From a virus: 64,000 nt of DNA. The notes below the pieces were generated by a model, which did not search any database, had not been told where the DNA came from, and saw only the letters and a list, made by a program, of their open reading frames with translations. Every line of letters begins with the position of its first letter. Position 1 is the stretch's first letter. The position numbers and the translations under genes were made by a program. Location of the stretch: the IMG/VR virus record IMGVR_UViG_3300023174_000145, positions 1-64,000 of that record; one strand, given 5' to 3'. Shown piece after piece: positions 4,855 to 52,247 of the stretch.

Positions 4855-5145
4855 CTATTCTCCGAATAATGCTTTTTTAAGTGCTGGCTTTGGTTTAGCA
4901 CCAATAACCTGTGCTGTCTTAGAGCCATCAACATATACAGAAATAACAGGAATACTTGTGATATTAAATGCATTTGCAAGTTCCTGATTTTCATCAACAT
5001 TGATCTTTAACAACTTTGCACCAGTTTCCTCTGCAAGTTGCTCCAATACAGGTGTAACCATTTTACAAGGACCACACCATTCTGCCCAGAAATCTACAAT
5101 AGTAGTTCCCTTTTTAACTTCTTCTACAAAGTCTGCAATATTCAT
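4855..5145 (-). CDS. Thioredoxin
   Basis: This 96-residue protein is a complete, slightly short thioredoxin. It has the active site WCGPC (Cys24, Cys27), the buried charged residue region VDFWAEW, and the cis-proline motif SIPV. It reduces disulfides, and in some phages it serves as a polymerase processivity factor or as electron donor for nucleotide reduction; neither partner is identified in this window. The start has a strong AAGGAGA site. A structured RNA element lies just upstream at 5169-5267. Confidence 0.93.
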   Translation of the reverse strand: MNIADFVEEVKKGTTIVDFWAEWCGPCKMVTPVLEQLAEETGAKLLKINVDENQELANAFNITSIPVISVYVDGSKTAQVIGAKPKPALKKALFGE

Positions 5146-5742: not shown

Positions 5743-6189
5743 CTAATCTGATGTTTCTTTTACGACTGCACCTAGCATCCAATGCCATCTTTGGTGCATA
5801 TCCTGACGCTCTGCAAAGAAGTTTGCCAAAGCATTTTGCTTCAATTCTGTGGCTAAATCAAAACCTCTAATAAGTTTGACAGTCACAGCATCATTTGCAG
5901 CCAATAGGTCTGAAGCCATAGAAACTGGATCTGAAGTTACATCTGTTTCTGGAAGGTCAGAATATGCAATAAATCTAGAAAGTTTATATGGTGCATAATC
6001 ACCAAGTTTTCTCAACCATTCAGCAAAGGTGTCAATAGAGCTATCATAATCTTGATAGATATCTTCAAAAAACTCGTGATACTGAGGGAAATCATCGCCC
6101 TCTACATTCCAATGATAACCGTGTGCCTTAAACTTAAGAGCAACCATATCAGATAGGGCAACTCTAAGTATTTGCAACAATTCTTCCAT
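5743..6189 (-). CDS. dps: Dps-like ferritin
   Basis: This 148-residue protein has the Dps ferroxidase ligands at the correct spacing: His26 (in HWNVEG), His38, Asp53 and Glu57, matching the 12/15/4 spacing of His31, His43, Asp58 and Glu62 in the Listeria protein. The C-terminal FFAERQDMHQRWHWML helix is also typical. Dps proteins store iron and protect DNA from peroxide, usually as dodecamers. It may protect phage DNA during infection. The start has an AAGGAGA site, and tRNA genes lie immediately upstream in the transcript. Confidence 0.9.
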   Translation of the reverse strand: MEELLQILRVALSDMVALKFKAHGYHWNVEGDDFPQYHEFFEDIYQDYDSSIDTFAEWLRKLGDYAPYKLSRFIAYSDLPETDVTSDPVSMASDLLAANDAVTVKLIRGFDLATELKQNALANFFAERQDMHQRWHWMLGAVVKETSD

Positions 6190-7788: not shown

Positions 7789-7879
7789 TGTTTTTCCATT
7801 CATTTGCTTTATATCCAAGAAGAACAGCAAGTATAGTGGCAACCTGACCAACTATAAATCCAAAAATAAAATTAATCAT
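7775..7879 (-). CDS. 34-residue single-span membrane protein
   Basis: The ORF starts 8 bases before the stop of the upstream gene and ends 14 bases inside the next one. Nearly all of residues 2-23 is hydrophobic (FIFGFIVGQVATILAVLLG), followed by a short charged tail. It could be a second holin component or an antiholin. Function is not known. Confidence 0.5.
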   Translation of the reverse strand: MINFIFGFIVGQVATILAVLLGYKANEWKNNEKQ

Positions 7880-8093
7880 TTAATACACTCACTGTAATTA
7901 GAAATGCTTCTGCAAAAGCCGCATTTTCTACTGCAAGATCTTCAACGTGACCTACATCTAATGTTCTACGAGCAAGATATTCCTGTAACCCAAAAGTATA
8001 TTTAGTAATAAAATCATCTACTGAAATAAACTTATTAGATTCTTTTTTAGATTCTTTTGACACTTTTTCAAATTTCCATTCGTTATAACTCAT
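7872..8093 (-). CDS. 73-residue conserved-type hypothetical protein
   Basis: The start at 8093 has an AAGGA site. A longer frame to 8126 would begin inside the tmRNA 3' end and is rejected. The N-terminal part is highly charged (KFEKVSKESKKESNK), and the C-terminal part is an amphipathic helix rich in Ala, Val and Leu. No family recognised. Confidence 0.65.
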   Translation of the reverse strand: MSYNEWKFEKVSKESKKESNKFISVDDFITKYTFGLQEYLARRTLDVGHVEDLAVENAAFAEAFLITVSVLND

Positions 8094-8105
8094 TATTATC
8101 CTTTG

Positions 8106-8353
8106 TGGAGATGGGCGGATTTGCACCGCCGTCCTTTATATTTTCCATTATACAGTATGTCAGCAGTTTTGTCTAGCGTTTTTTCTTACTTTTTATACGA
8201 CTTTCTGTTCCTATCTAGTCGTCAGACGGCTTTAGTTTATGCAGCTAAAGCGAGAGCGTTTTGTGTTGCGCCATTTGTTTTTATTTAGTTTTACAAGTTA
8301 CTGTCTTGTGCTGCTGTATAAAGTTCCATATAAAGTCGAAACTATACATCCCC
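8106..8353 (-). ncRNA. ssrA: tmRNA (transfer-messenger RNA), compact
   Basis: The 5' end GGGGATG pairs with the 3' CATCTCC to make a 7-bp acceptor (one G-U). The 3' half has the T-arm GGCGG TGCAAAT CCGCC, and the 5' part carries the conserved TTCGAC. A tag reading frame ends at the TAA at 8237-8239 and encodes NGATQNALALAA, possibly preceded by Thr; the ALAA end is the classic proteolysis tag. At about 248 nt it is much shorter than the usual 350-400 nt, so some pseudoknots must be missing or small. CCA is not encoded. It would rescue stalled ribosomes and tag their products. Confidence 0.88.
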
Positions 8354-8361
8354 AAGATTGT

Positions 8362-8790
8362 TTAGCAATCTAATAGTGGTTGTGGATCAATATCACTTGT
8401 AGTGTTCCAGTAAGGTGTTGTATGAACCTCAAAATGAAGATGTGGTCCAGTTACATTTCCTTCTTTACCAGAAAGAGCGATTACTTGACCCTTCTTTACT
8501 CTTTGTCCAACCTTTACCTTTGCTTCAGAACAATGTGCATAGATAGCCCATACTGGTTTTGTACCAATACCGTGTGTTTTCTTTACTCTATGAACAACAA
8601 GAACTGAATGGTGTCCAAAGTTTGGACCCCAAGGTGCACCTACTGCTACAACCCGACCAGACTTTGCAGCCAATACAGGTGTACCAACCTTACAAGGGAA
8701 GTCTACTCCCTGATGATGACCTGCTGACCAGATCTTTCCAGGCTTACCATAAGGTGTGCCAATCTTTCCATCTTTAATAGGCAATGCCAT
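8362..8790 (-). CDS. M23-family peptidase endolysin (copy 1)
   Basis: A 142-residue protein that is essentially one LytM/M23 domain. The zinc ligands are His26 and Asp30 in HQGVD and His119 in GPHLHFE; His86 (IYAH) and His117 are the catalytic histidines. It should cut peptidoglycan cross-bridges or stems. There is no signal peptide, so it needs a holin. It has a strong GGAGG site and follows its paralogue almost directly. Confidence 0.9.
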   Translation of the reverse strand: MALPIKDGKIGTPYGKPGKIWSAGHHQGVDFPCKVGTPVLAAKSGRVVAVGAPWGPNFGHHSVLVVHRVKKTHGIGTKPVWAIYAHCSEAKVKVGQRVKKGQVIALSGKEGNVTGPHLHFEVHTTPYWNTTSDIDPQPLLDC

Positions 8791-8791
8791 T

Positions 8792-9238
8792 TTACTTTCC
8801 TCCGATTTTTTTAATTAGTTTTGTTAAAGGATTCTTACCTGTATATGAGATAAGATGCTTAGGATCTTTGGATCCGCCAACCTGCCAAAATTGTGTTGGC
8901 TGTGCTTCAAGGTGTAGATGTGGATCATTTCTCTTCATACCTTCTCTACCTACATCAGCGATATGCTGTCCTAGTTTTACCTTATCACCTATTTTTACAT
9001 ATACCGCAGAAACGTGACCATAAACTACATACCATTTTCCGTGTTTTATTACTGGTGCATATTGACCAAAAGATGGTCCCCAAATGCCTACCCCAATAAC
9101 AACACCATCAGCAACAGCGTGTACTGGTGTTCCTATCTTTGCACCAAAGTCAATGCCTTGATGCCAACCACTCATCCACTGGGGACCTCTGGTTCCATAG
9201 GCACAAATAACTGGTGCACCTTTAATTGGTTTTGCCAT
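8792..9238 (-). CDS. M23-family peptidase endolysin (copy 2)
   Basis: I choose the ATG ending at 9238 because an AAAAGGAGA site precedes it; the frame remains open to 9286, but that part overlaps the tRNA-Arg end. The 148-residue protein has the same domain as the next gene: His26 and Asp30 (HQGID), His75 (YGH), His107 and His109 (PHLHLE). The C-terminus carries an extra basic tail (LTKLIKKIGGK). The two tandem copies are diverged, so they are an old duplication or were acquired separately. Confidence 0.9.
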   Translation of the reverse strand: MAKPIKGAPVICAYGTRGPQWMSGWHQGIDFGAKIGTPVHAVADGVVIGVGIWGPSFGQYAPVIKHGKWYVVYGHVSAVYVKIGDKVKLGQHIADVGREGMKRNDPHLHLEAQPTQFWQVGGSKDPKHLISYTGKNPLTKLIKKIGGK

Positions 9239-9283
9239 AATAATTCTCCTTTTACTAAGTTCAATTTTATTATAACATATTTG

Positions 9284-9356
9284 CACCCCCAGAGAGATTC
9301 GAACTCCCGACCTGTAGGGTAGAAACCTATCGCTCTATCCACTGAGCTATGGGGGC
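9284..9356 (-). tRNA. tRNA-Arg (UCU)
   Basis: Acceptor GCCCCCA pairs with TGGGGGT (first pair G-U). Anticodon loop TTTCTAC carries TCT. The outermost anticodon-stem pair is an A-C mismatch, the only irregularity. The T-loop is TTCGAAT. Confidence 0.88.
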
Positions 9357-9762: not shown

Positions 9763-10773
9763 TTACAAGGATTTTGTAATACTTTTACACATATCTTCCA
9801 CAAGTTGCTCAAAAGATAGTTTAGGTTCCCATCCAAGCTTTGTGATTGCTTTTGAGATATTGCCAACTAAAAGATCTACTTCTGCTGGTCTAAAAAACTG
9901 TGGGCTAATTCGAATAACAGTTTGTCCTGTATTAGTATCAATACCTACTTCATCTAAACCCTCACCCTGCCATTCAATATTCATACCAAAATAGTTTGAT
10001 GCGATATTAATAAAGTGCCGTACTGAATTGGTTTGACCTGTTGCAATAACAAAATCATCTGGTTCATCTTGTTGGAGAATCATCCACATAGCCTCAACAA
10101 AGTCTTTAGCGTGACCCCAATCACGCATAGCATCAATGTTGCCGAGATACAAACAATCTTGTTCTTTATTTGATATAGCGTGTAAACCCTTTACAATCTT
10201 TTGTGTAACAAAGTTATCACCACGCCGAGGTGATTCGTGATTAAAAAGAATTCCAGAACAAGCAAACATTCCATATGATTCACGATAGTTTTTTGTAATC
10301 CAATAAGCATAAAGCTTTGCTACACCATATGGAGAGCGTGGATAAAAGTCTGTTGTTTCTGATTGCGGTATCTCTTGTACCTTACCAAACATTTCAGATG
10401 TTGATGCCTGATAAAACTTTGTATTAAGACCAAGTAATCTAATAGCCTCAAGAATACGAAGTGCTCCTAATGCATTAATATCTGCGGTTGTTTCTGCAAA
10501 ATCAAAAGATAGACCAACGTGTGACTGTGCACCAAGATTATAAATCTCATCTGGTTTAATTGAATCAATAATGCGTGTAAGAGATCCAGAATCTGTTAGA
10601 TCTCCATCGTGCATAAAAAAGTTTGGTGTTCCAATTAGGTGATTAATTCTACCACCATTTGGAGTAGATGTTCTACGATTAAGTCCGTGAACCTCGTATC
10701 CTTTTTCTAAAAGAAACTCTACAAGATAAGAACCATCTTGTCCAGTAACTCCAGTGATTAATGCTTTTTTCAT
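9763..10773 (-). CDS. gmd: GDP-mannose 4,6-dehydratase
   Basis: This 336-residue protein is a full-length Gmd of the short-chain dehydrogenase/reductase superfamily. It has the NADP-binding motif [11 protein letters not shown], the catalytic YxxxK (SPYGVAK), STSEMFG and the NHESPRRG segment. It converts GDP-mannose to GDP-4-keto-6-deoxymannose, the first step to GDP-fucose, GDP-rhamnose or perosamine. No second-step enzyme is visible here, so the host may finish the pathway. Terminators flank the gene on both sides, making it a transcription unit of its own or a read-through cassette. A glycosyltransferase is encoded about 5 kb upstream. Confidence 0.95.
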
Positions 10774-40276: not shown

Positions 40277-40803
40277 TATACTTCCACCAAACTAAGATTT
40301 ATATCCCAAAGATCTGTATCTATGCCCCTAGTTATAATATTATATGAAAAGTTTTCAAAAAATACATTTACTATTTCTACATTTGTTTTAATTTCTGACT
40401 TTAATACTGAAGGATCATTGTCATAAACAAACAATGCCCAAAAACTTCCAGTATGATTGTTATACCAATCTAATATTTGTTGACCACCACCAAACTGATT
40501 TCTTGTATTTGAATATTCAGTTACATAGTCTTTTCTAGATGGAAGTCTTTTCCAAGAAGTAGAATATGTTTTTTTATCTGCAATATGATATGAACGCATT
40601 GTTCCATTTATCATACGTTGTCTATGTTCTATTCTTTCAAAAGCAATAGCAAGATCTGAACGATTATCATCAGATAGATATAAATAATTTGTTCCAAGAT
40701 CCCATTTTCCAGCTCTAGAACCTACACCTTCTACTGGCTTATCTTCTGTAAAAATAATTAATGATGGTCTAGAATATTTTTCTTGTAAGTATCCATATGA
40801 CAT
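40276..40803 (-). CDS. Distal tail (Dit-like) protein
   Basis: A 175-residue protein between the tape measure and hub genes, the usual place of Dit or tail-tip ring proteins. It contains YSTSWKRLPSRKDYVTEY, ILDWYNNHTGSFWALFVYDN and a final strand pair (DTDLWDINLSLVEV). The match is by position and style only. It is linked to both neighbours by one-base overlaps. Confidence 0.65.
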   Translation of the reverse strand: MSYGYLQEKYSRPSLIIFTEDKPVEGVGSRAGKWDLGTNYLYLSDDNRSDLAIAFERIEHRQRMINGTMRSYHIADKKTYSTSWKRLPSRKDYVTEYSNTRNQFGGGQQILDWYNNHTGSFWALFVYDNDPSVLKSEIKTNVEIVNVFFENFSYNIITRGIDTDLWDINLSLVEV

Positions 40804-43800
40804 TAACAGTAAACACCTCTTGAGTTATTACCTATTGTACCACCCATAGCCTTATTAACGTGACCCATAACCATATCCATACCTGCACCATTAAAGTTAA
40901 AGTGATAAGTTGGGGCATTTGTGTTACCTTCTGCATATCCACCGCCATTATATTGTGCAATAGATGCTATACCAGATGGAGAAATGGATGGTGTTGAAGG
41001 AATACTATATGTAGGAGAAGATGGAACTGAGGTTCGTGGCATTACTCCAACACCACCCCCACCTGCATATCTTCCAGCATTAACAGCATTCATAAATGGA
41101 ACGCCATACTTTGCTACAGAAGAAGCCTTTACTACATATTCCCCATTTGACAACATCGCTGGTATAGAATCGGAAGTTGTGCTTCCTGGACCAACCATAT
41201 GTCCACCATTAGCGGCATATTTAAACCAAGGGAAAAGTCTATGAGTTATTCTAGAACCACCATAATTTGTTACGTTTGAATAATCTTCGCCCTCACCTTT
41301 ACCTGTTAAAATATTGAATAGTGATTGAGCAGAGTCAAATTGATCCAGTTTTTCCGCTGCCTCTGGAACATATTTTTTGGCTGCTTTTCCAACAGGTTTT
41401 GCAGCATTTAATACCGACCTTACTCTATTGCTTTCAATTATTGATTTAATTTTATTAGACTCTGAAAAAGTTTTTAGTTTATTAACATCTGTAACTAAAT
41501 CTATAAGTGTTCCACTAGCATAAACAGCATTTTTTGCATCTATTGTTTTTGACAATAATCCAGCAACTCTAGATGCTTTTGACGCAATAGATGCAATTCT
41601 TCCAACCTGAGCAAATTTTGCAAGCATAGCAGCCTGACCAGCTCCTGGAACAAACATAAGGGCGGTGGTGCCTAATTCTAATAATCCACCACCAAGTGAT
41701 TTAAATCCAGCCTTAAATTCACCTTTTCTAAAATGCCTATACATACTAGTAAAATCATCAACACCCAGTAAATTATTTGCAATTCCAGAGCCAATACCCT
41801 TAATAAACTTTTTAGGATCTTTCATTGTAGATATTGCAAAATTTTCAACAGTATCTGAGATGTCAGAGACGGTGCTTCTTGCTCCATTCCATAAACGTTT
41901 AACCAATCCACCAAATGCAAAGTGTTGAGAATTTATAGAATCTAAGAAAGGTTTTCCATACTTTGATACAGATGATGCTTTAACTACATATTCTCCATCA
42001 GATAACATAGCTGGAATTGAGTCAGATGTTGCTGTTCCTGGACCTGAGATATATCCACCATCTGCCCAATATTTCCATTGTGTAACAGGAGTTTTTGATG
42101 GATCTGTTTTAAGTGCTTTTTTATTGTATGGAGATCCATCAGCATATTGCCATTTTCCACCAACTTCGTAAATTCTTGTTCCATCTTGAGCATATCCAGA
42201 TTTTGCAGTTGATGGTGGGCTTGTTTGTGGAGTTGTTGGTGGATTTGTAATTCCAGGCAAACCATTTTCATTAAGTGTTATGGCATAAGCAAAAGCTGCA
42301 ACAGCTTCTGTAACTCCAGGAGCAGGTGGTTTTTGCAAAAGACCAAATACATCCTTATAGGCTTTAGATGTTTCTGGATCAATACCCTGTGATTGAAATA
42401 TCTTTTTTACATTTGTACTTGCAGCATTTAATCTATCTACTGCATCCATCGTGTCTCCAGCCATAATAGCAACAGCATCATTAAAACCTGATTTTGCAGT
42501 GTTAAATGATTTGATTATACTTTGATCTTTAGTATTAATAGTCAATCCAGTTCCAGCAGAAATTCCTGTCTTTTCTGCTTTATCTGCAGCAGATTGTGCA
42601 GCAAGTATTGCTTTCTGCCAGCCTGGAGTACCAATAGACATACCCTGAGCTTTTTCAATCAAATCTAATGCTTGAGTTATTTGACCAACAGCTTGTGATT
42701 CTTTTTTGCGAAGCAAATCTATTTCTGCATTAATATTATCTATCTCAGCCTGATGTCTGGTATCTTCTGCTTTCTTTCTGTCATCAATAGCCTTTAATGA
42801 ATCATCAAGTTTCTTTTGTTCTGCATCGGCGGTGTCTTGAATATTTTGCATAGACAAATCTCTACCATATTGATCTGCTGCACTTGCTGCCTCTATTTGA
42901 GAACCAATAAATCCAAATACATCTCCAGATGCTATAGCCTTTAATCCAGTTAAACCAGTTTGTCTTTGCTTTGCATAAAAATCCTCTGCTTCTTTTTCTT
43001 TTTGTAATTGCTTTAAATAGTAATCGGTATTTTCTTGCAATATACCTTTTTTGTTATTAATTCTTTCTGCTTCAAGATCTAGATTTTCTAATGCCTTTTC
43101 GTGTCTTTTATCTTCAGTTTCAAGTTCTGCCTGTTTTGCCTCTATTGCAACATCAAATACTTTTTGAATACCTTCTTTTAATTGATTTAGTTGTTTTGCG
43201 GTATCTTCTAGTTGAAGGTCAACATCAGTTTCTATTTTTACAAGAGACATTCTTTTTGCTAATTCTTCTGGAATTTTTTTGCCAAGGTCTGCCTCTATTG
43301 TTCCATTTAAAATTGCTGCACTAAGGTCTTGACCCATACCATTACCTAGAGCAAGAAGTGCAGCTTTTTGTTTTGATTTATCTAGTTTAAAGAAAGCACC
43401 ATCTTTTCCAAAAAAATCAAACAGTGCGCTTCCTTCTCCAAAACCTGCATCTTTAACCATTTGTTGTAGTTGATCTGACAATTTTCCTATATCAGCATTT
43501 TTAAATTCAGAAACTATTAAATTTACTGCTTCTGTGGAAGCAGTTGGATTTTCCGCAGCCATTGCAAATGCAGATTTTAATGTTGCACCTAACTGTGATG
43601 CAATTTGAGTTTTAACTTTATTATCAATTAATACTGGTGCAATTAATGATGTAATCTGCGCTCCACCAAGATAGCCCCAAACACCTTTTGTTCCAAAAAT
43701 TCCCCTTAAGAATTTATCCTTAAGACCATTTCCAGTTGCACCAAGTGCTTCAAACATTACTCTTTGATTTTCAGCACCAGACTTCATAAGTTGGTCCCAA

Positions 43801-46800
43801 CTCTGACCATTCCATTGTGCTTTAACACCAAATTCATTAGATCTCTGTTGTAATAAAGCTGTTTGATTTTTTAATGTTAATATTTGTTGAGCCAGAGCAT
43901 CTGGTGCTGTTTTTATTGTTTTAAGTCTTTCAACTACACTAGCATAAGAATCTAAGGCTTGTCCTTGTCTTGCAATTTCTGCCGTTATTTCTCTTGCTTC
44001 TTTAGCCTTTATACCTCTTTGAATTAAATTGCTATAAACATTAACAAGCTGATTATTCTTTTCTTGCAAACTTTTTGTACTTTTTAATGTGTCAATCAAT
44101 GGACTAAAATCTGTTTTAACTGTTTTTTCAAAAGCTTTATTGTATGCACCAATGCCTTGATCTAAACCAGAAATATTTTGAGCAACTTTATTAAATTTTT
44201 CTACAGCATCTGTTGTAGATTTTAACTGAATACCTAACAATTTTGCAGTTTCTGTAGGTTCAGCAAAAGCTGCTTTTCCAGCCTGTCTTGCTTTTTCCAT
44301 TTCAGCATTATAAATTTCAATACCTTTTTGAATCCCAGTAATTGCAAGATCAATTCCCATACTAACTATAGGATTACTTAAAGCACTTGCAAGTTTGCCC
44401 ATACCAGACCCAACTCCAGATAGTCCCTTTCCAATAAATCTTTTAATAGGACTATTAACAGCTTTTCTAGTTTTAATATCGTAGATATCGGCACTCATTT
44501 CGTCACCTTTATCTTTTAAGGTTTGTCCAAAAGTACCCATACCACTATTTGCAAAGTATTTTAGTCCTTGTGTAGCAGCAGCAATTCCAGCAACCCATTT
44601 TTGTCTGCCATTTTGAACATCAGATGTGAATTGATCCAATACAAACTTCATTTGAAAACCTGATGTTGCCATCATACTGAAAGCTGCAGCAAACTTACCC
44701 ATACTTCCTGGTTGAATATCTCCCATATATACTGGTTCTGTAAAATCTGCCGATGTGCTGTCAAAGTTGTTTGCTCTAAAGTTTTTACCACGAATTAATG
44801 ATGTTCCAAATGGATGAACAATTCTCTTTCTTGCTTCATCTCCTGGACTTGTAACACCTGCTACTCTGCCATCTGGAGTAACCGCCAAAAGTTCACGGCT
44901 TGAAACAGCCATTGGATGACCACTTGCAGATGTGACCAACATATCATCAATAGTGCTTGAAAGAATCTTACCATCAGGAGATACATTAACGGTAGCACCT
45001 GTACCACTAATTCTGTCTCCACCGCCAGCAAATGATGGATAAATAATTTTTGATTTAGAAACTCCACTTGGCATAACAACACCACTTCTTGATTGTGGAG
45101 TTTTTGCATCTTCGTTATATGAAATAACTTTAACTGTTGGCAAGCCTGGTGGCAATGCTCTAGATTGAAGTGTTTCATAGAAGTCACCCTTTAGTCTTTC
45201 TTGCAAACCTGCAACTACCGCAATAGGAATACCTTTTCCATCTTTTGTATTTCTTGGAAACATTCTTGCAAGTTCAAGCATAGTCATAGCACCTTGGCGG
45301 GTAGTTGGATGAATACCCTTAGAAAGATTAGTTAACTGTTCAATTACAACATTCTTTGGTAATCCTGTTTGTGACATAACTGCATCAATAACATATGGTG
45401 CTAATAATCCACCACGACTTTGAATATCGCCTCTGCTTTTAAGTGTTTCAAGGAATGTATTATATACCTGAGATTCTTTTATTAGATTTGCTGCTTCCCA
45501 TATCTTTGTATACACTTCTCCAGTATTTGTTGTTGCAGGATTAATGTGCGCTAATACGTCTAGCATATAATACATAGCTTTTTTATCTGGATTTTCAAGA
45601 CCAGCATCAATTAATGCTTGCATAATTGCTCGTGACTCTGCACCCTTTGTAGCCCAATCAGGCAGTGATCTTAAAACAGTTTCATATTGTTTTGGTGCAG
45701 ATCCCTTTTTGTCCCATTTATGAGTTGCTTCTTTCATAGAGTCTTCTGCAAAATTATTCACTCTGCCGCCAGATTGTAGATGTTCTGGATTTAATAAATG
45801 TGAAACTCCAGTAATGTTTTTACCAGTAAGTTCATCTGTAACGCCAAAAAGTTTTGCAAGAGCAATTTCAATTATATTTGGATAAACTTTTGTTCCTGGA
45901 TTTTTAGCCCTTCTGCGCTCCGTATTATCTCTAGTTTTTGCAAGAGTGCCACCAATTCCCTCAGCCGCTGTTTGAAAAACTGTATAATCAGCTTTTTTCC
46001 TTTGATAAATTTTTTCAGGTAATGGAAAACCTTTAAGTTTTGCTGGCAAATTTTTTAAAGTATATGACCCATCTTTTTCTAGTACATATCCCAAAGCATC
46101 AAATGCTTTATCTACACCAAATGCTCCTAAGTCTGTTCTAACATCAGAAAACTCTCCTCGTTTTTTAAAGTCTTCTATTAGCGACTGAACCTTTTTTGAC
46201 ATTAAAGTTTTTTGATAAAGTTCTGGATCATTAATCATATCGTTTGGATCTGTTTTATTTAATTTGTTAGAAACAAAAGACTGTATTTCTTTAGGATTAA
46301 TTGTTGTTCCAATTTTATTAAACAATGCAGTCATTGTATTTAAAGCTTTTGGTGCATTTATATAATTATACAAATCCATTTCTTTTGCTGATGACTTAGA
46401 AAGCTCACTATTTAATGTTTTTGGTATGTCAAATCCAATAGGATAAAGCAATCTACTTGCTCCAAAACTCATATAAGGTACAGTATGTGCAAATGCTAAA
46501 TTATTAGATTTATATTCTTTTTGATACAAAGATTTATCAGCAAAATTATTTACTCTTCCACCAGATTGCAGCATCCAAGTTGGGAAACCTGCATCTATTG
46601 CCTGTTGACGCTCTGCTGCATCTGCTGCTTTCTTTTCTAATGCTTTTGCTGTAGGAGCAGATTTTGGCTTAACTGGTTCTGGTTTAATGCCAACGTGATG
46701 AGCGTGTATTTCTTTCCAATTAATTTTACTTGCTGCTGACAAATCACCAATAAGTAATTGATACATTGCTTTTTCTTCAGGTGTTAGATTTTGAAGAGCA

Positions 46801-49800
46801 CCAATAGCACCACCAGCATTTGCCTGTGCCTCAGCAATAGCATTTAAGAAACCAGCCTCATATTGCTCTGGTGTCATTGATGCTGCTATACCTGCTGTTG
46901 CTTCTGCAAACCATCTACGAGCACCACCTTTTTGCATAAGGAAATTAATTCTTGCTTGTGTAGCAACATCATACTTTTTACCACTTAATGTTCTTGGCTG
47001 TGATGCTCTATCTGAAACATATGCAGCACCTGTATCTGTAACAATGCTATCAAATAAATTATCTGCTTGAAGGTCGGCATCCCCACGAATAATTGCTGCA
47101 AGTGCTTGTTTAAAGAATGCTTCTGGTGCAATCTGTCCAGATGTTTTAGCAAATCTTGAATCAAACGGTGAACGAACACCAAACATTTGCTGACCAGTTT
47201 GTGGATGTAAGAATTTAATTAGTTCTTGTTGTGGTGTGGTCAAACCAAACATATCTTGAGTTAATTGTGTTCCTCTAGATTCAATAAGGGCGGAATCAAG
47301 TGTGTTATGACCCTTAACAATAAACTTTTGACCATTAATTTCATAAACACCATTAACTCCAGGAATAGCAGAACTAAATCCGCCCATACCACTTTGTCTT
47401 TGACCAACATCAGTTATTGGCATACCAGCAAATCTTCCAGTAGTTGCTTCTAGATGAGCAAGGGCAAGCATTTCTTCAATAGCTGCTTGTTTGTCTGCAT
47501 ATTTTTGTGGCATTAATGATTTAGATTCAAAGTTGTTTACTCTTCCACCTTTTAGATATCCAACTGGACTAAGATCTGGTATATGAGCTGGATATGGTTG
47601 TTTTAGCTGTACATAGTCGCTATTCTCTTCATCCCAAATATCATAGATTGCTTTATTAGATATTGGAGATAGACTAATTCCATCTCTACCAATATTAAAG
47701 TTTGTTATAGTTGCAGGAGACCATTTGATACCTTGATATCCTTCTTTAACTAAATATTCAAAAAATGGGGAGCCAGGACCACTATGTTCTGCTGCACTTG
47801 CTGCATCTCTAAGCCAATGATTTTTATTAAAGGATGGTCCATAATAATCTCTGTCCTGCATTGCTTCTTTTCCAGATTTTGTTCTAGAAAAAGAATTAAT
47901 AAGTTGTATTAATTGTTTACTTGGTTCGTGAAAATCTGTTGTTTCATCATATGCTTCAATATAGCCTTTTCCTCTAGCAACTTTTCTAAAAGCTTCTCTT
48001 GTTTTTGAAATAGTATATTTGAAGCCTCCTGCATAACTATCCCAGCCTTCATCGTGTGTCTTTAAGTTTGATGAAAAATATGTTCCAGGACCTTCCATTT
48101 GAGCTGACCCTCTATCATACTTTTCCATAGTTTGAATACGACTTGGATCTATGGCAAGCATTTGGTCTCCAGCGTGAACCATAAACATTTCCATAAGAGC
48201 TGCTTTCATTCCTGGACTTAACTGATTTGGATCAGTAATATTAAACATACTCATATATCTTCTTAGTATATTTAATTGTGTTTTTTCTTCTTCTGACCGA
48301 CCAACAGCATTAGGAAGCAAAATATGAAGTGCAGTATTTAAAGGATTTGATCCCCATATTTCATCATCTGGATATGGTCTTCTTTTTTCAGACCTTCCAC
48401 GACCAAAACCTTTAAAATTATGAGACTGTAACTCTGTATCTATATATTGAGAAGAAGCCTTTTTTATTTCTTCTTCTGTCCAGCCAACCTCAGCACTCTG
48501 TATTCTTCCACCATTTTGTTTAAAATTAAGAACATAAGGGAATAAATGCTTTTGCTCGTCATAGGCTTTTTGACCACCTCTGAAACTAGATGGCGGTGCC
48601 CACATTTGAGAAACAGAATCTAATACCCCAGAAGTTGTAGCTGTTGCTATTTCTCTTTCCTTTAACTGCTCTCCCATATATTCAGTGCTTTGTGCTATTT
48701 GTGATATAGGAAGCATTGATGTGCCTTTACCAAACAATCTTTCAATCATAACTGTTTGAGGCTCTACACCCATAGGAAGTTGGCTTTGAAGTTCATTCTT
48801 TACCGCCTGAACAGTTTCTTCTCTGGCTCTTCTACCACGATCTATAGCATCTTCAGTAATTGGATCGGTAGGAGATAAACCAATTCTTTTTTGTAAATCT
48901 TCTATTACAAATGGATTATTTGGTTCTCTTCTAAACATATCAACAACATAATTAAATGCATCTAGATTCTTTTGTTTTCTAAGCAAGTCTTCTTGAATAA
49001 AACTTCTACCAGAAAGAGGATTGCTAAATTGTTTTCCAACTAGCCAGTCAAGTGCGTGTTCGCTATATGATTGTGGAGAACCATTAAAGTTAATTTTTCT
49101 TCCAGCAAGACTTAAGAAATCTCCAGATTCTAGTGCTTGCAAAATAGCAAGTTGGTCTGCGTCTGGTATTTCTCCAGGAAGTCCCAAAGATGTTTTTCTT
49201 CTAAGAGTCATCGGGTCTTTAGATGGCTCAAAGTATGACATAAATTTTTGAAGTCTTTCTGGATCTTGTCTTAGATATTGAGTGCTTTGTTGCCAAGATT
49301 CTACTAATGATAATAATTCTGGTGATACTGATTTATCAGCGTAGTTATTTACTCTACCGCCAGACTGGAATATAGGAACTTCACGACCATTTATATTTTT
49401 AGTTGCTCCTGGAAGAACAGAATGAAGCATAAGCATTCTTGTTTTAAGGTCACTACCATATCCAGTAATTGGAATACTCATTCCACCAGGAAGAATAAAC
49501 TCACCTTCATTGCCCCATTGAGTTGTACCTTGAAAAAGTGACTGAACATCTATGCCACCAATATTATTTCCTTTACCAGTCCAAAGGTCGTGTATCCAAG
49601 GAATTAATTCTCCAGCATCTAGTTTTCTTTGACGAGAATCAGAAACCCTTTTATTTTTTGGATCTTGAAATGTTTTAATAAATCTTTTGTAAAATTCTGT
49701 ATCTTGAATATCACTGTATGAAGTAAACCTATCTAATCTTTGCTGATATGGTGCATTTGCCCAATTCAATCTTACATCTCCACGACCACCACGACTGGTA

Positions 49801-52247
49801 AGCCACATAAGAGTTTCCCATATTTGTCTTACTTCTGGAGTATGTCTATTTTTATCATCATATAATTCTGCTCGCATTAAATGCTTGTTTTCTAATGAAG
49901 TTGAGCCAGAAACGTCATTAAAAATATCTCTAAAAAATCCTGGATACTTTTCTCCCATTGGAGAGATTCTACCAATTCCAGGAGAACCAGCATTTGCATC
50001 AAATGGTCTACGACCAGCAAGAACTGGATTTATCCAAGCCCTTAATGCAAGTTGTAAATCTTCTGGAGTATATGATGTATTAGCATATCCATTTATTCTA
50101 CCACCCGATTGAAAGCGAGGTGCTTGTTTAAAGTTAATCTCATCAAGAAGACCAGAATGTTGCTGTGCTGCTTTTTTATTTACAACATATTCTCCAGGCT
50201 CAAGCATTGCTGGAACCTTATCTCCGTCTCCACTTCCTGGCACCCAAGGAGAACCACCTCTTTGGAATTTTGCTCTTGGTGGGCTTCCAGTAGTAGTCTG
50301 AGCAGCAACTTGTTGATTAACAAATCCTGGATTTAATGTAATAGCCTCACTAAGATGTTTTTTATAAACTGCAAGAACTTGATTAAGTTTTTCAACACTA
50401 GTTTTTTGTTGCTCAAAAGCCATAGATAGAGCATCTGTTGATTTTTGTGCCATAAGTTGTGTGTCATCAAGCATCTTAAATTTTTCAACAGGGATACCAG
50501 ACATTCTTCTACCAAGGTTAACAATACCCATAGCACCTTTAGCAATATAACCAATAAAGTTAGAAAATACACCAGCAACCATAATTATTGGACCAGCAAT
50601 TACAGCCAATCCAGTCGCTACTTTAATAAAAGATTTTACAGGAGATGGAAGTTTTTCAAAAAATTTGATTACTTGTCCAATTTTTTTAGTCACGTTTTCA
50701 ATAATTGGAGTAATTGCACTTGTAATAGAACCACCAATATCAATAAACTGTGATTTAATAGATTCTGTTGCTCTTTGGAATCTTTTAGCACCACTATTCA
50801 TAAGTGTATCCATTTCAAGATATGAATTAGCAGCAAGTTCTTTTTGAGACTTACCCATCAATTCCATAACTTGCATAGTCTGTGAACTTGATGCATTTAG
50901 ATTATCAAACAGTGCAGATATACGAGCAAACTGATATTTACCAAATATGTTTTCAATAACTTGTGCTTTACCAAAATCATCAAGTAGCTGTAATTGTTTT
51001 TGAAATTCAATAATTGTTGGCATAAGTTGTCCACGATTTGCTTGAACAATCTTGTTAATATCTATTCCATATTGTGCAGCAACTTCAGTTGCTCTCTTAG
51101 TTGGATTAATAAGAGATGCCATACCAGATTTAATTGCGTTAGCACCTTCTGCCGCAGATATACCACCTTCTTTAAGAGCAACCATAAGAAGCGAAAGATC
51201 TTTAACGTCTCCACCAAGTGCTTTAATAACAGGACCAGCTTTTGGAATTGCTGTTGTTAAGTCTTGCAAAGAAAGAGATGTTTGGTTTTCTACAGCATTT
51301 AAAAAGTCAACAGAGTGAGCAAGTTCATCTGTACTAACTTTAAATGCATTTTGAATAGATAGCGTTGCTTTCATAGCATCTGCTCTATCTACATCACCAA
51401 GAGTTGCTAAACGAGTAGTTTCTCTAATTGAATTTAAAAGTTTTTGCCCTTCAAGACCTGTTGCCGCAAGGTCTGCGGCTAGTGATGCGGTATCTTTTAC
51501 AGCAATACCCATAGTTTTTGCAAACTCAATACCTAGTTGCTTTACATTTTCAGTCATTTTAATTGTTTCAGCGTCACCAGATGACATAAGACCAGAACCA
51601 TAAACTTTTTGGAATCTTGTTAATTCTTCATTTACTTCACGGAAAATCTTTGACATTTGATTTCCCCACATAGTTAGTGGTACAGTAAGACCAACAGTAA
51701 TCTGTCTACCAGCCCATTGTGTATTTTTACCAAAATTAATAAGTTTGGTTGTTCCATCTTGAACTATAGAATTAAATATATCAAACTGTTTTCTAGAAAC
51801 AGCAAGTTTTGTGTTAAAATCATTAAGATTAATATTTTGTGGGGTAATCATCATCCCCAGTTGCTTGCCACTCTTTTCACCAAGAATAGCAAGTTGTGAC
51901 ATTTCACGAGCAACTTCACGAACTGCTAATTTATGTGCATTTGATGATTTTGTAAATGCACCAATTCCTTCTTTTGCATATTGTTTTAGGCTTAGTTCCT
52001 GTTTTTCAAGGGCTTTTCCAAAAGAAGTTACATTATCAGTGAGCTCTATTACCTTTGTGTTCCAGCCACCCATCTTTCCAATATCACTAGAAAGTGCGTC
52101 ACCAAGACTTAGTTTTAATGCAGATGCTTGTTTATCAAAATTTTGAAGTGTTTGATTTAAAAGATTTGCTTGCGTTTGCAATAAACGCATCTGATTAATG
52201 ACTGGACCAAAATCAGCATTATACTTAAAATAAGCATCAATACTCAT
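40803..52247 (-). CDS. Giant modular tape measure protein
   Basis: A 3814-residue tape measure protein. Residues about 200-450 form a TP901-type tape measure domain (DLAATGLEGQKLLNSIRETT, EGANAIKSGMASLI); residues about 540-572 are hydrophobic membrane-active helices. From about 661 a PAML-x2-GEYVV hairpin starts an array of roughly six globular modules reaching to about 2400, separated by GGRVNNFADKS-like linkers. Residues about 3010-3096 and 3136-3183 are coiled coils. Two more GEYVV hairpins lie near 3391-3437 and 3676-3719. It sets tail length and may carry effector domains into the host. If fully helical it would span about 570 nm, but the modules make the real tail shorter. Confidence 0.93.
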   Translation of the reverse strand: MSIDAYFKYNADFGPVINQMRLLQTQANLLNQTLQNFDKQASALKLSLGDALSSDIGKMGGWNTKVIELTDNVTSFGKALEKQELSLKQYAKEGIGAFTKSSNAHKLAVREVAREMSQLAILGEKSGKQLGMMITPQNINLNDFNTKLAVSRKQFDIFNSIVQDGTTKLINFGKNTQWAGRQITVGLTVPLTMWGNQMSKIFREVNEELTRFQKVYGSGLMSSGDAETIKMTENVKQLGIEFAKTMGIAVKDTASLAADLAATGLEGQKLLNSIRETTRLATLGDVDRADAMKATLSIQNAFKVSTDELAHSVDFLNAVENQTSLSLQDLTTAIPKAGPVIKALGGDVKDLSLLMVALKEGGISAAEGANAIKSGMASLINPTKRATEVAAQYGIDINKIVQANRGQLMPTIIEFQKQLQLLDDFGKAQVIENIFGKYQFARISALFDNLNASSSQTMQVMELMGKSQKELAANSYLEMDTLMNSGAKRFQRATESIKSQFIDIGGSITSAITPIIENVTKKIGQVIKFFEKLPSPVKSFIKVATGLAVIAGPIIMVAGVFSNFIGYIAKGAMGIVNLGRRMSGIPVEKFKMLDDTQLMAQKSTDALSMAFEQQKTSVEKLNQVLAVYKKHLSEAITLNPGFVNQQVAAQTTTGSPPRAKFQRGGSPWVPGSGDGDKVPAMLEPGEYVVNKKAAQQHSGLLDEINFKQAPRFQSGGRINGYANTSYTPEDLQLALRAWINPVLAGRRPFDANAGSPGIGRISPMGEKYPGFFRDIFNDVSGSTSLENKHLMRAELYDDKNRHTPEVRQIWETLMWLTSRGGRGDVRLNWANAPYQQRLDRFTSYSDIQDTEFYKRFIKTFQDPKNKRVSDSRQRKLDAGELIPWIHDLWTGKGNNIGGIDVQSLFQGTTQWGNEGEFILPGGMSIPITGYGSDLKTRMLMLHSVLPGATKNINGREVPIFQSGGRVNNYADKSVSPELLSLVESWQQSTQYLRQDPERLQKFMSYFEPSKDPMTLRRKTSLGLPGEIPDADQLAILQALESGDFLSLAGRKINFNGSPQSYSEHALDWLVGKQFSNPLSGRSFIQEDLLRKQKNLDAFNYVVDMFRREPNNPFVIEDLQKRIGLSPTDPITEDAIDRGRRAREETVQAVKNELQSQLPMGVEPQTVMIERLFGKGTSMLPISQIAQSTEYMGEQLKEREIATATTSGVLDSVSQMWAPPSSFRGGQKAYDEQKHLFPYVLNFKQNGGRIQSAEVGWTEEEIKKASSQYIDTELQSHNFKGFGRGRSEKRRPYPDDEIWGSNPLNTALHILLPNAVGRSEEEKTQLNILRRYMSMFNITDPNQLSPGMKAALMEMFMVHAGDQMLAIDPSRIQTMEKYDRGSAQMEGPGTYFSSNLKTHDEGWDSYAGGFKYTISKTREAFRKVARGKGYIEAYDETTDFHEPSKQLIQLINSFSRTKSGKEAMQDRDYYGPSFNKNHWLRDAASAAEHSGPGSPFFEYLVKEGYQGIKWSPATITNFNIGRDGISLSPISNKAIYDIWDEENSDYVQLKQPYPAHIPDLSPVGYLKGGRVNNFESKSLMPQKYADKQAAIEEMLALAHLEATTGRFAGMPITDVGQRQSGMGGFSSAIPGVNGVYEINGQKFIVKGHNTLDSALIESRGTQLTQDMFGLTTPQQELIKFLHPQTGQQMFGVRSPFDSRFAKTSGQIAPEAFFKQALAAIIRGDADLQADNLFDSIVTDTGAAYVSDRASQPRTLSGKKYDVATQARINFLMQKGGARRWFAEATAGIAASMTPEQYEAGFLNAIAEAQANAGGAIGALQNLTPEEKAMYQLLIGDLSAASKINWKEIHAHHVGIKPEPVKPKSAPTAKALEKKAADAAERQQAIDAGFPTWMLQSGGRVNNFADKSLYQKEYKSNNLAFAHTVPYMSFGASRLLYPIGFDIPKTLNSELSKSSAKEMDLYNYINAPKALNTMTALFNKIGTTINPKEIQSFVSNKLNKTDPNDMINDPELYQKTLMSKKVQSLIEDFKKRGEFSDVRTDLGAFGVDKAFDALGYVLEKDGSYTLKNLPAKLKGFPLPEKIYQRKKADYTVFQTAAEGIGGTLAKTRDNTERRRAKNPGTKVYPNIIEIALAKLFGVTDELTGKNITGVSHLLNPEHLQSGGRVNNFAEDSMKEATHKWDKKGSAPKQYETVLRSLPDWATKGAESRAIMQALIDAGLENPDKKAMYYMLDVLAHINPATTNTGEVYTKIWEAANLIKESQVYNTFLETLKSRGDIQSRGGLLAPYVIDAVMSQTGLPKNVVIEQLTNLSKGIHPTTRQGAMTMLELARMFPRNTKDGKGIPIAVVAGLQERLKGDFYETLQSRALPPGLPTVKVISYNEDAKTPQSRSGVVMPSGVSKSKIIYPSFAGGGDRISGTGATVNVSPDGKILSSTIDDMLVTSASGHPMAVSSRELLAVTPDGRVAGVTSPGDEARKRIVHPFGTSLIRGKNFRANNFDSTSADFTEPVYMGDIQPGSMGKFAAAFSMMATSGFQMKFVLDQFTSDVQNGRQKWVAGIAAATQGLKYFANSGMGTFGQTLKDKGDEMSADIYDIKTRKAVNSPIKRFIGKGLSGVGSGMGKLASALSNPIVSMGIDLAITGIQKGIEIYNAEMEKARQAGKAAFAEPTETAKLLGIQLKSTTDAVEKFNKVAQNISGLDQGIGAYNKAFEKTVKTDFSPLIDTLKSTKSLQEKNNQLVNVYSNLIQRGIKAKEAREITAEIARQGQALDSYASVVERLKTIKTAPDALAQQILTLKNQTALLQQRSNEFGVKAQWNGQSWDQLMKSGAENQRVMFEALGATGNGLKDKFLRGIFGTKGVWGYLGGAQITSLIAPVLIDNKVKTQIASQLGATLKSAFAMAAENPTASTEAVNLIVSEFKNADIGKLSDQLQQMVKDAGFGEGSALFDFFGKDGAFFKLDKSKQKAALLALGNGMGQDLSAAILNGTIEADLGKKIPEELAKRMSLVKIETDVDLQLEDTAKQLNQLKEGIQKVFDVAIEAKQAELETEDKRHEKALENLDLEAERINNKKGILQENTDYYLKQLQKEKEAEDFYAKQRQTGLTGLKAIASGDVFGFIGSQIEAASAADQYGRDLSMQNIQDTADAEQKKLDDSLKAIDDRKKAEDTRHQAEIDNINAEIDLLRKKESQAVGQITQALDLIEKAQGMSIGTPGWQKAILAAQSAADKAEKTGISAGTGLTINTKDQSIIKSFNTAKSGFNDAVAIMAGDTMDAVDRLNAASTNVKKIFQSQGIDPETSKAYKDVFGLLQKPPAPGVTEAVAAFAYAITLNENGLPGITNPPTTPQTSPPSTAKSGYAQDGTRIYEVGGKWQYADGSPYNKKALKTDPSKTPVTQWKYWADGGYISGPGTATSDSIPAMLSDGEYVVKASSVSKYGKPFLDSINSQHFAFGGLVKRLWNGARSTVSDISDTVENFAISTMKDPKKFIKGIGSGIANNLLGVDDFTSMYRHFRKGEFKAGFKSLGGGLLELGTTALMFVPGAGQAAMLAKFAQVGRIASIASKASRVAGLLSKTIDAKNAVYASGTLIDLVTDVNKLKTFSESNKIKSIIESNRVRSVLNAAKPVGKAAKKYVPEAAEKLDQFDSAQSLFNILTGKGEGEDYSNVTNYGGSRITHRLFPWFKYAANGGHMVGPGSTTSDSIPAMLSNGEYVVKASSVAKYGVPFMNAVNAGRYAGGGGVGVMPRTSVPSSPTYSIPSTPSISPSGIASIAQYNGGGYAEGNTNAPTYHFNFNGAGMDMVMGHVNKAMGGTIGNNSRGVYC
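45740..50265 (-). other. Module array inside the tape measure protein
   Basis: Six short related linkers of the form [G]GGR(V/I)NN(F/Y)A-x-(K/D)S start different globular segments at about residues 714, 961, 1244 (variant GGRIQSAEVGW), 1564, 1893 and 2156. The segments between them are 250-330 residues long and not similar to each other. Segment 3 looks like an ADP-ribosyltransferase fold and segment 4 like a kinase fold; segment 1 has a weaker transferase-like pattern. Confidence 0.7.

What the first reader, a model, noticed from the sequence alone, without database searches (positions are those of the whole stretch)
8106..8353. Compact phage tmRNA with tag NGATQNALALAA
Acceptor pairing, TTCGAC, T-arm and a tag ending in ALAA identify a tmRNA. 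It is only about 248 nt. Phage tmRNAs are known from a few mycobacteriophage clusters, but one this short, sitting in the lysis/tRNA region, is uncommon. The resume codon and number of pseudoknots are not clear.
Basis: partly seen in the sequence, partly recalled or inferred. Interest (0 to 1): 0.7.

Follow-up and report, generated by a model that had tools for sequence, protein, structure and literature searches.

The report
Compact phage tmRNA, coupled elbow change
A virus that probably infects actinobacteria carries a very small version of the bacterial "ribosome rescue" RNA (tmRNA); it is real, belongs to a phage family already known to carry tmRNA, and stands out for its small size and for a matched two-base swap in the part that folds like a tRNA.

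Summary
The feature is real: a one-piece tmRNA on the minus strand, mature RNA 8106-8353 (248 nt before CCA addition). Rfam RF00023 gives 65.4 bits, E 2.9e-23; ARAGORN agrees. The fold has z -3.8 and the helices show compensatory changes. The resume codon is GGC, so the tag is GATQNALALAA, not NGATQNALALAA. G3-U70, PK1 stem 1, helix 5 and one further hairpin are present; canonical PK3 and PK4 are absent, and no second stem was found that would make the hairpin a PK2. CCA is not encoded and no SmpB was found, so host factors must serve it.
Seven other viral contigs carry a close relative (tag G[AT]TQNALALAA).
Two points are less ordinary. (1) The D-loop/T-loop pair G18/U55 is A18/G55 here; in about 200 tmRNAs (many related) the two sites always matched. 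(2) The mRNA-like half of the Streptomyces-phage relatives scores as two-piece (permuted) tmRNA; in the window's own clade that signal is too weak to call.
Most likely role: trans-translation with host SmpB during infection.

The parts
8106..8353 (-). tmRNA gene, mature RNA 248 nt up to A73; CCA is not encoded (genomic 3' sequence is A-CAA)
   Evidence: RF00023 65.4 bits; ARAGORN; fold z -3.84
8347..8353 (-). acceptor stem 5' strand GGGGAUG; pairs with 8107-8113; contains G3 of G3-U70 (alanine identity pair)
   Evidence: sequence; 7 of 7 homologues pair
8107..8113 (-). acceptor stem 3' strand CAUCUCC, followed by A73 at 8106
8342..8343 (-). D-loop dinucleotide A18-G19 (canonical GG), just before U-UUCGAC
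8310..8334 (-). helix 2 (a, b, c) 5' strand; pairs with 8135-8164
   Evidence: 4 pairs with changes on both sides among homologues, one of them also mismatched in 3
8287..8309 (-). reduced PK1: stem 1 ACAAG/CUUGU (5 bp), possible stem 2 AGU/ACU (3 bp)
   Evidence: paired in 7 of 7 but invariant, so no covariation support; stem 1 is in the MFE fold
8237..8272 (-). tag reading frame, resume codon GGC at 8270-8272, GATQNALALAA, stop UAA at 8237-8239
   Evidence: tag differs at 3 of 36 nt and the rest at 35 of 215 from L310
8229..8251 (-). helix 5, GCUUUAG/CUAAAGC, overlapping the tag end and stop codon
8197..8222 (-). hairpin ACGACU/AGUCGU with loop motif GGAACAGAA (8203-8211), in the place of PK2; a 4-bp outer stem GUCU/AGAC encloses it (8224-8227 with 8171-8174)
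8135..8164 (-). helix 2 3' strand
8114..8130 (-). T-arm GGCGG-UGCAAAU-CCGCC; G55 of the T-loop is at 8124
8362..8790 (-). upstream gene: M23 peptidase; its stop codon is 8 nt before the tmRNA
   Evidence: Pfam PF01551 E 1e-24
7872..8093 (-). downstream small ORF (MSYNEW...); its AAGGA-like ribosome-binding site abuts the tmRNA 3' end
   Evidence: sequence

Best explanation
It is a functional, compact, one-piece phage tmRNA of the kind carried by Stanwilliamsviridae. Host RNase P, 3' processing and CCA-adding enzymes make the mature ends (inferred: CCA is not encoded). Host alanyl-tRNA synthetase charges it through G3-U70 (inferred from identity rules). Host SmpB and EF-Tu bring it to ribosomes stalled on broken mRNA (inferred: no SmpB gene was found in the record). 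The ribosome switches to GGC and adds Ala-GATQNALALAA, which ends in the LAA signal read by host Clp proteases. During infection this would keep ribosomes free and dispose of truncated proteins. The elbow of the tRNA-like domain is held by an A18-G55 contact in place of G18-U55 (inferred from the coupling). Shown: existence, structure, conserved tag frame, absence of SmpB from the record, coupling of the two elbow sites. Not shown: expression, charging, tagging, benefit to the phage.
For: Covariance match and ARAGORN; MFE fold with TLD, helix 2, PK1 stem 1, helix 5 and hairpin, z -3.84; compensatory changes; the tag frame is conserved in 8 sequences of the clade, two of the three tag differences to L310 being synonymous; all distinct tags seen in Streptomyces-phage relatives end in LAA except that of BillNye; G3-U70 kept in 7 of 7; no SmpB in this record or in eight related ones; tmRNA in all 7 Stanwilliamsviridae genomes tested.
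Against: No expression or protein data. PK1 stem 2 is only 3 bp and invariant, so PK1, the pseudoknot regarded as most important (general knowledge), is not proven. The record is an incomplete metagenome contig, so SmpB could lie outside it. Relatives with 85-86% identical terminase (L003, L004, L010) show no tmRNA in the DNA held, so the gene is dispensable or mobile. The host is not identified.
Confidence: 0.78

Rival explanations
1. A decoy: the RNA titrates host SmpB or occupies stalled ribosomes, inhibiting host trans-translation, as proposed for TLD-only molecules like that of mycobacteriophage DS6A.
For: A TLD-only molecule inhibits tmRNA when expressed (cited in PMC4131195 and PMC11915505); PK1 is minimal here.
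Against: Unlike DS6A it keeps a conserved open tag frame ending in ALAA, a stop codon, helix 5 and a resume codon at the family position, none of which a decoy needs.
Confidence: 0.1
2. A decaying relic without function.
For: Reduced pseudoknots; relatives L003, L004 and L010 lack a detectable tmRNA.
Against: Compensatory base changes, conserved tag frame and the matched two-site elbow change imply selection.
Confidence: 0.05
3. The same working tmRNA, but taken from the actinobacterial host and shortened independently, rather than inherited within the phage family.
For: Hosts of the related phages are actinobacteria.
Against: The two actinobacterial tmRNAs at hand (Arthrobacter and Clavibacter plasmids) are about 390 and 370 nt, have no GGAACAGAA-type motif, and the Clavibacter segment scores with the one-piece model. 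The motif is in all phage-family sequences and in none of 28 one-piece controls. True aquatic host tmRNAs were not available for comparison.
Confidence: 0.1

Closest known systems
tmRNA of Stanwilliamsviridae phages (Streptomyces clusters BE1/BE2 and Loccivirinae; Sushi23, Tomas, Moab, Wakanda, Francob)
   Same: One-piece gene, resume codon at the same place after AUAAAU or a near variant, tag ending in ALAA, hairpin with GGAACAGAA, acceptor stem GGGGAUG/CAUCUCC in several, no encoded CCA, no SmpB
   Different: Here 248 nt against 269-298; Gly instead of Ala (or Asp) resume codon; tag GATQNALALAA; A18/G55 instead of G18/U55; PK1 and the PK2-site element reduced
Two-piece (permuted) tmRNAs of alpha/beta type, including aquatic phage forms
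   Same: D-loop AG with T-loop UGC; hairpin with an NAACAGAA loop
   Different: Gene is not permuted: 5' and 3' halves are in normal order and no relic acceptor piece was found within 600 nt upstream
Mycobacteriophage cluster C tmRNA (Stubby, Bixzunavirus)
   Same: Phage-encoded, one-piece, inside a tRNA cluster
   Different: 435 nt, tag ATDTDATVTDAEIEAFFAEEAAALV, canonical elbow, no shared hairpin motif
Mycobacteriophage DS6A TLD-only tmRNA
   Same: Reduced phage tmRNA
   Different: DS6A has no tag frame; this one does (PMC4131195, PMC11915505)

Membership tests
tmRNA (Rfam RF00023) | covariance match above gathering score | tested here: met
   65.4 bits against 47
tmRNA (Rfam RF00023) | tRNA-like domain: 7-bp acceptor with G3-U70, D-loop UUCGAC, T-arm | tested here: met
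   elbow bases are A18/G55 instead of G18/U55
tmRNA (Rfam RF00023) | tag reading frame with stop codon in the helix 5 region, conserved in relatives | tested here: met
tmRNA (Rfam RF00023) | PK1 upstream of the resume codon | tested here: inconclusive
   stem 1 firm (5 bp, in MFE fold); stem 2 only 3 bp and invariant
tmRNA (Rfam RF00023) | PK2, PK3 and PK4 (usual, but not required for membership: their number varies among tmRNAs) | tested here: not met
   a hairpin takes the PK2 place and no PK3/PK4 sequence remains
tmRNA (Rfam RF00023) | alanine charging, SmpB binding, tagging | not testable with these tools
   needs bench work
Stanwilliamsviridae-type phage tmRNA | phage related to Stanwilliamsviridae | tested here: met
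   terminase 60-63% identical over the full length
Stanwilliamsviridae-type phage tmRNA | shared internal motif and alignable tmRNA | tested here: met
   model built from the window clade finds Streptomyces-phage tmRNAs at 34-72 bits; this overlaps some unrelated tmRNAs (up to 46 bits), so the shared motif is the better evidence: in all phage-family sequences, 0 of 28 controls
Two-piece (permuted) tmRNA | circularly permuted gene order | tested here: not met
   halves in standard order; RF04321 below its cut-off
Two-piece (permuted) tmRNA | mRNA-like half scores best with alpha/beta/permuted models | tested here: inconclusive
   7 of 7 Streptomyces-phage relatives score best with a beta, alpha or permuted model; the window clade gives 14 bits or less, not significant

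The most novel reading that the evidence does not exclude
The one-piece tmRNAs of this phage family descend from a two-piece (permuted) tmRNA whose halves were joined again in the normal order. This would explain their length (about the sum of the two pieces), the missing PK3/PK4, the two-piece-like mRNA half and, in the window's clade, the A18/G55 elbow seen in many two-piece tmRNAs.
Probability: 0.2. Interest if true: 0.72.

Novelty: new variant of a known kind. Interest (0 to 1): 0.42.

Why it matters
Phage tmRNA as such is documented. What this adds is a natural, very compact one-piece tmRNA useful for asking how little is needed for trans-translation, and a matched change at the tRNA-like elbow that gives a clean test of a D-loop/T-loop contact in tmRNA. 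If the two-piece-like mRNA half reflects ancestry, it would be a case of a permuted RNA gene returning to normal order in a virus; the literature read here mentions one such case, a mitochondrial one (PMC11915505).

Tried and rejected
Tag with leading N: rejected, because AAU is -3 to -1 of the resume codon and the family alignment puts the resume codon at GGC. Direct blastn of the tmRNA against phages gave only T-arm tips and chance hits. Reading the A18/G55 elbow as proof of alphaproteobacterial origin: rejected, because a one-piece viral tmRNA (L132, and L161 by eye) has it too and the acceptor stem is identical to that of several Streptomyces phages. Sequence-only HMM of the two-piece mRNA half: E. 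coli scores as well because of the shared tag, so not decisive; a post-stop-only HMM is above shuffles in 6 of 13 Streptomyces-phage tmRNAs and in no window-clade member. Search for a relic acceptor piece upstream: none. Hidden tmRNA in relatives L003-L021: none found with the clade model. Genome scan for the tag: one one-piece Parachlamydiales tmRNA with an unrelated body and one Pelagibacteraceae contig without a tmRNA. Comparison with tmRNAs of aquatic actinobacteria could not be made, because no such genome handle was reachable.

Full report
OBSERVATION. The window lies in a 74,408-base virus record. On the minus strand Rfam RF00023 (tmRNA) matches 8103-8353 with 65.4 bits (cut-off 47), E 2.9e-23, and ARAGORN predicts a tmRNA at 8105-8353 with tag GATQNALALAA. 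The mature RNA is 8106-8353, 248 nt to the discriminator A; the following genomic bases are CAA, so CCA is not encoded. None of the 20 related phage tmRNA sequences listed encodes it either, and only 1 of the 8 tRNAs in the window does.

ANATOMY. The unconstrained MFE fold of the 248 nt (-56.6 kcal/mol, shuffles -42.4 +/- 3.7, z -3.84, 0 of 200) contains, without prompting, the acceptor stem GGGGAUG/CAUCUCC with G3-U70, the T-arm, helix 2 in three sections with a 3' bulge, the first stem of PK1, helix 5 around the stop codon and a hairpin after it. On seven homologues 99.2% of pair cells are paired and 5 pairs have changes on both sides (3 of 500 shuffles reach this); sliding partners drops pairing to 32-46%. 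Support is concentrated in helix 2 and the T-stem; PK1, helix 5 and the hairpin are invariant in the clade, so their support comes from the fold and from the wider family. The hairpin stem is ACGACU/AGUCGU here, GUGACU/AGUCAC in Sushi23 and GUAGCU/AGCUAC in Jay2Jay, that is, compensated. Canonical PK3 and PK4 are missing, and I found no second stem that would make the hairpin a PK2. PK1 stem 2 would be AGU/ACU only.

TAG. Alignment to the family puts the resume codon at GGC, directly after the AUAAAU-type sequence (ACAAAU here) that precedes GCC, GCA or GCU in most relatives and GAC in Tomas. A glycine resume codon is known elsewhere (Bacillus anthracis, PMC1168896). In L310 the tag differs at 3 of 36 positions and the rest at 35 of 215; two of the three tag changes are synonymous (GTTQNALALAA). 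All distinct tags seen in Streptomyces-phage relatives end in LAA except that of BillNye.

CONTEXT. The large terminase is 60-63% identical over its full length to those of Streptomyces phages of Stanwilliamsviridae. An SLT-like protein (below the Pfam cut-off) and a DUF7455 protein seem compatible with an actinobacterial host; the host itself is not known. The tmRNA sits in a tRNA cluster. In relatives L002 and L022 it follows tRNA-Arg after 15 bases, with a TATAAT-like box just before it; in the window two M23 peptidase genes lie between tRNA-Arg and the tmRNA. No SmpB gene is in this record or in eight related records.

HOW COMMON. Close relatives: L002, L022, L286, L310, L311, L312 and L313, all one-piece with tag G[AT]TQNALALAA. 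All seven Stanwilliamsviridae genomes tested, from both subfamilies, have a one-piece tmRNA; the family sequences extracted here are 269-298 nt. 86 phage records match the Sushi23 tmRNA. BE-cluster announcements list it (PMC5764925). A 2021 survey counts 402 phages with tmRNA among 18,146 (PMC9004378). So the presence of a tmRNA is expected for this phage group; at about 250 nt this clade is the shortest in the family sampled. I did not survey all tmRNAs and do not claim it is the shortest known.

ELBOW COUPLING. The window has D-loop U-A-G-UUUCGAC and T-loop UGCAAAU, where canonical tmRNAs have GG and UUC. I tested this by selecting viral contigs on one site and reading the other. Contigs selected on the D-loop (or, for a few, on the tag): 87 of 87 tmRNAs have UGC. 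Contigs selected on the T-loop: 49 read AG directly. Of the rest, 27 were re-read by placing the acceptor strand: 26 show AG in the D-loop, at slightly different spacing in some, and one (L128) could not be placed. Five rows were not re-read, two of them spurious one-piece predictions. Canonical side: 13 of 13 Streptomyces-phage tmRNAs and 26 of 26 controls with a readable T-loop are GG/UUC. That is about 200 distinct tmRNAs with no mixed combination. Many are close relatives, so this is not a count of independent events. Within the phage family the pair changed together: GG/UUC in Streptomyces phages, AG/UGC in the window clade. The U-to-G change in the T-loop of Caulobacter tmRNA was noted in PMC1168896; I did not find the coupling described in the papers read, but the search was limited to open-licence papers.

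TWO-PIECE-LIKE HALF. Internal segments (helix 2 to the hairpin, without the tRNA-like domain) were scored against all Rfam families. For all seven Streptomyces-phage segments the best match is a beta (RF01850, up to 36.1 bits), alpha (RF01849) or general permuted (RF04321) model; RF00023 is listed for none. One-piece controls: RF00023 is best for E. coli, five Chlamydiota, an Enterococcus phage, L132 and Clavibacter; mycobacteriophage Stubby and the Arthrobacter segment match nothing. The motif G[GC]NACAGAA occurs in 13 of 13 Streptomyces-phage tmRNAs, in all window-clade members, in 28 of 158 permuted viral tmRNAs and in 0 of 28 one-piece controls. The window clade itself does not score significantly with the two-piece models. 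Caveats: the sequence-only test is driven partly by the tag, compact RNAs may prefer models with fewer pseudoknots, and no relic of a permuted gene was found. I therefore keep rejoining of a two-piece gene as a hypothesis at 0.2.

VERDICT. A real, probably functional, compact phage tmRNA; a new variant within a known kind. The elbow coupling and the two-piece-like half are the parts worth following.

Noticed in passing
L083:1440-1765 (Stenotrophomonas phage BUCTxx99, OR529408): A permuted (two-piece) tmRNA, RF04321 100 bits, tag ANDDVYVVALAA by ARAGORN, not annotated in the deposited record.
   Followed up: partly
L334:1501-1798 (Streptomyces phage BillNye): tmRNA whose predicted tag ADNIDAEYEALCAEYALVTV does not end in LAA, unlike the other Stanwilliamsviridae tags seen.
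   Followed up: no
L375:380-730 (Enterococcus phage phiSHEF16) and L374:640-991 (cyanophage S-SSM6a): Unannotated phage tmRNAs, one-piece (RF00023 130 bits) and permuted (ARAGORN) respectively.
   Followed up: partly
L407:143-532 and L409:163-532: Plasmids of Arthrobacter and Clavibacter capsici carry full-length tmRNA genes with no listed annotation (tags ANATRSDYALAV and AELKRTDHVLVA).
   Followed up: no
window 8354-9286: Two M23 peptidase genes lie between tRNA-Arg and the tmRNA; in L002 and L022 these two RNA genes are only 15 bases apart, and the TATAAT-like box before the tmRNA of relatives is not seen in the window.
   Followed up: partly
L132:7072-7404 and L161:4605-4937: Unrelated one-piece viral tmRNAs with short tags (ANPVRLAA, DEPLLMAA) and the UGC T-loop; L132 and, by eye, L161 have AG in the D-loop, so this elbow is not confined to permuted genes.
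   Followed up: partly
window 40803-52247: A 3814-aa tail-tape-measure-like protein with repeated GGRVNNFADKS-type segments.
   Followed up: no
window 5743-6189, 4855-5145, 9763-10773: Ferritin-like (Dps-type) protein, thioredoxin-like protein and GDP-mannose 4,6-dehydratase encoded near the tRNA cluster (the thioredoxin is by eye).
   Followed up: no
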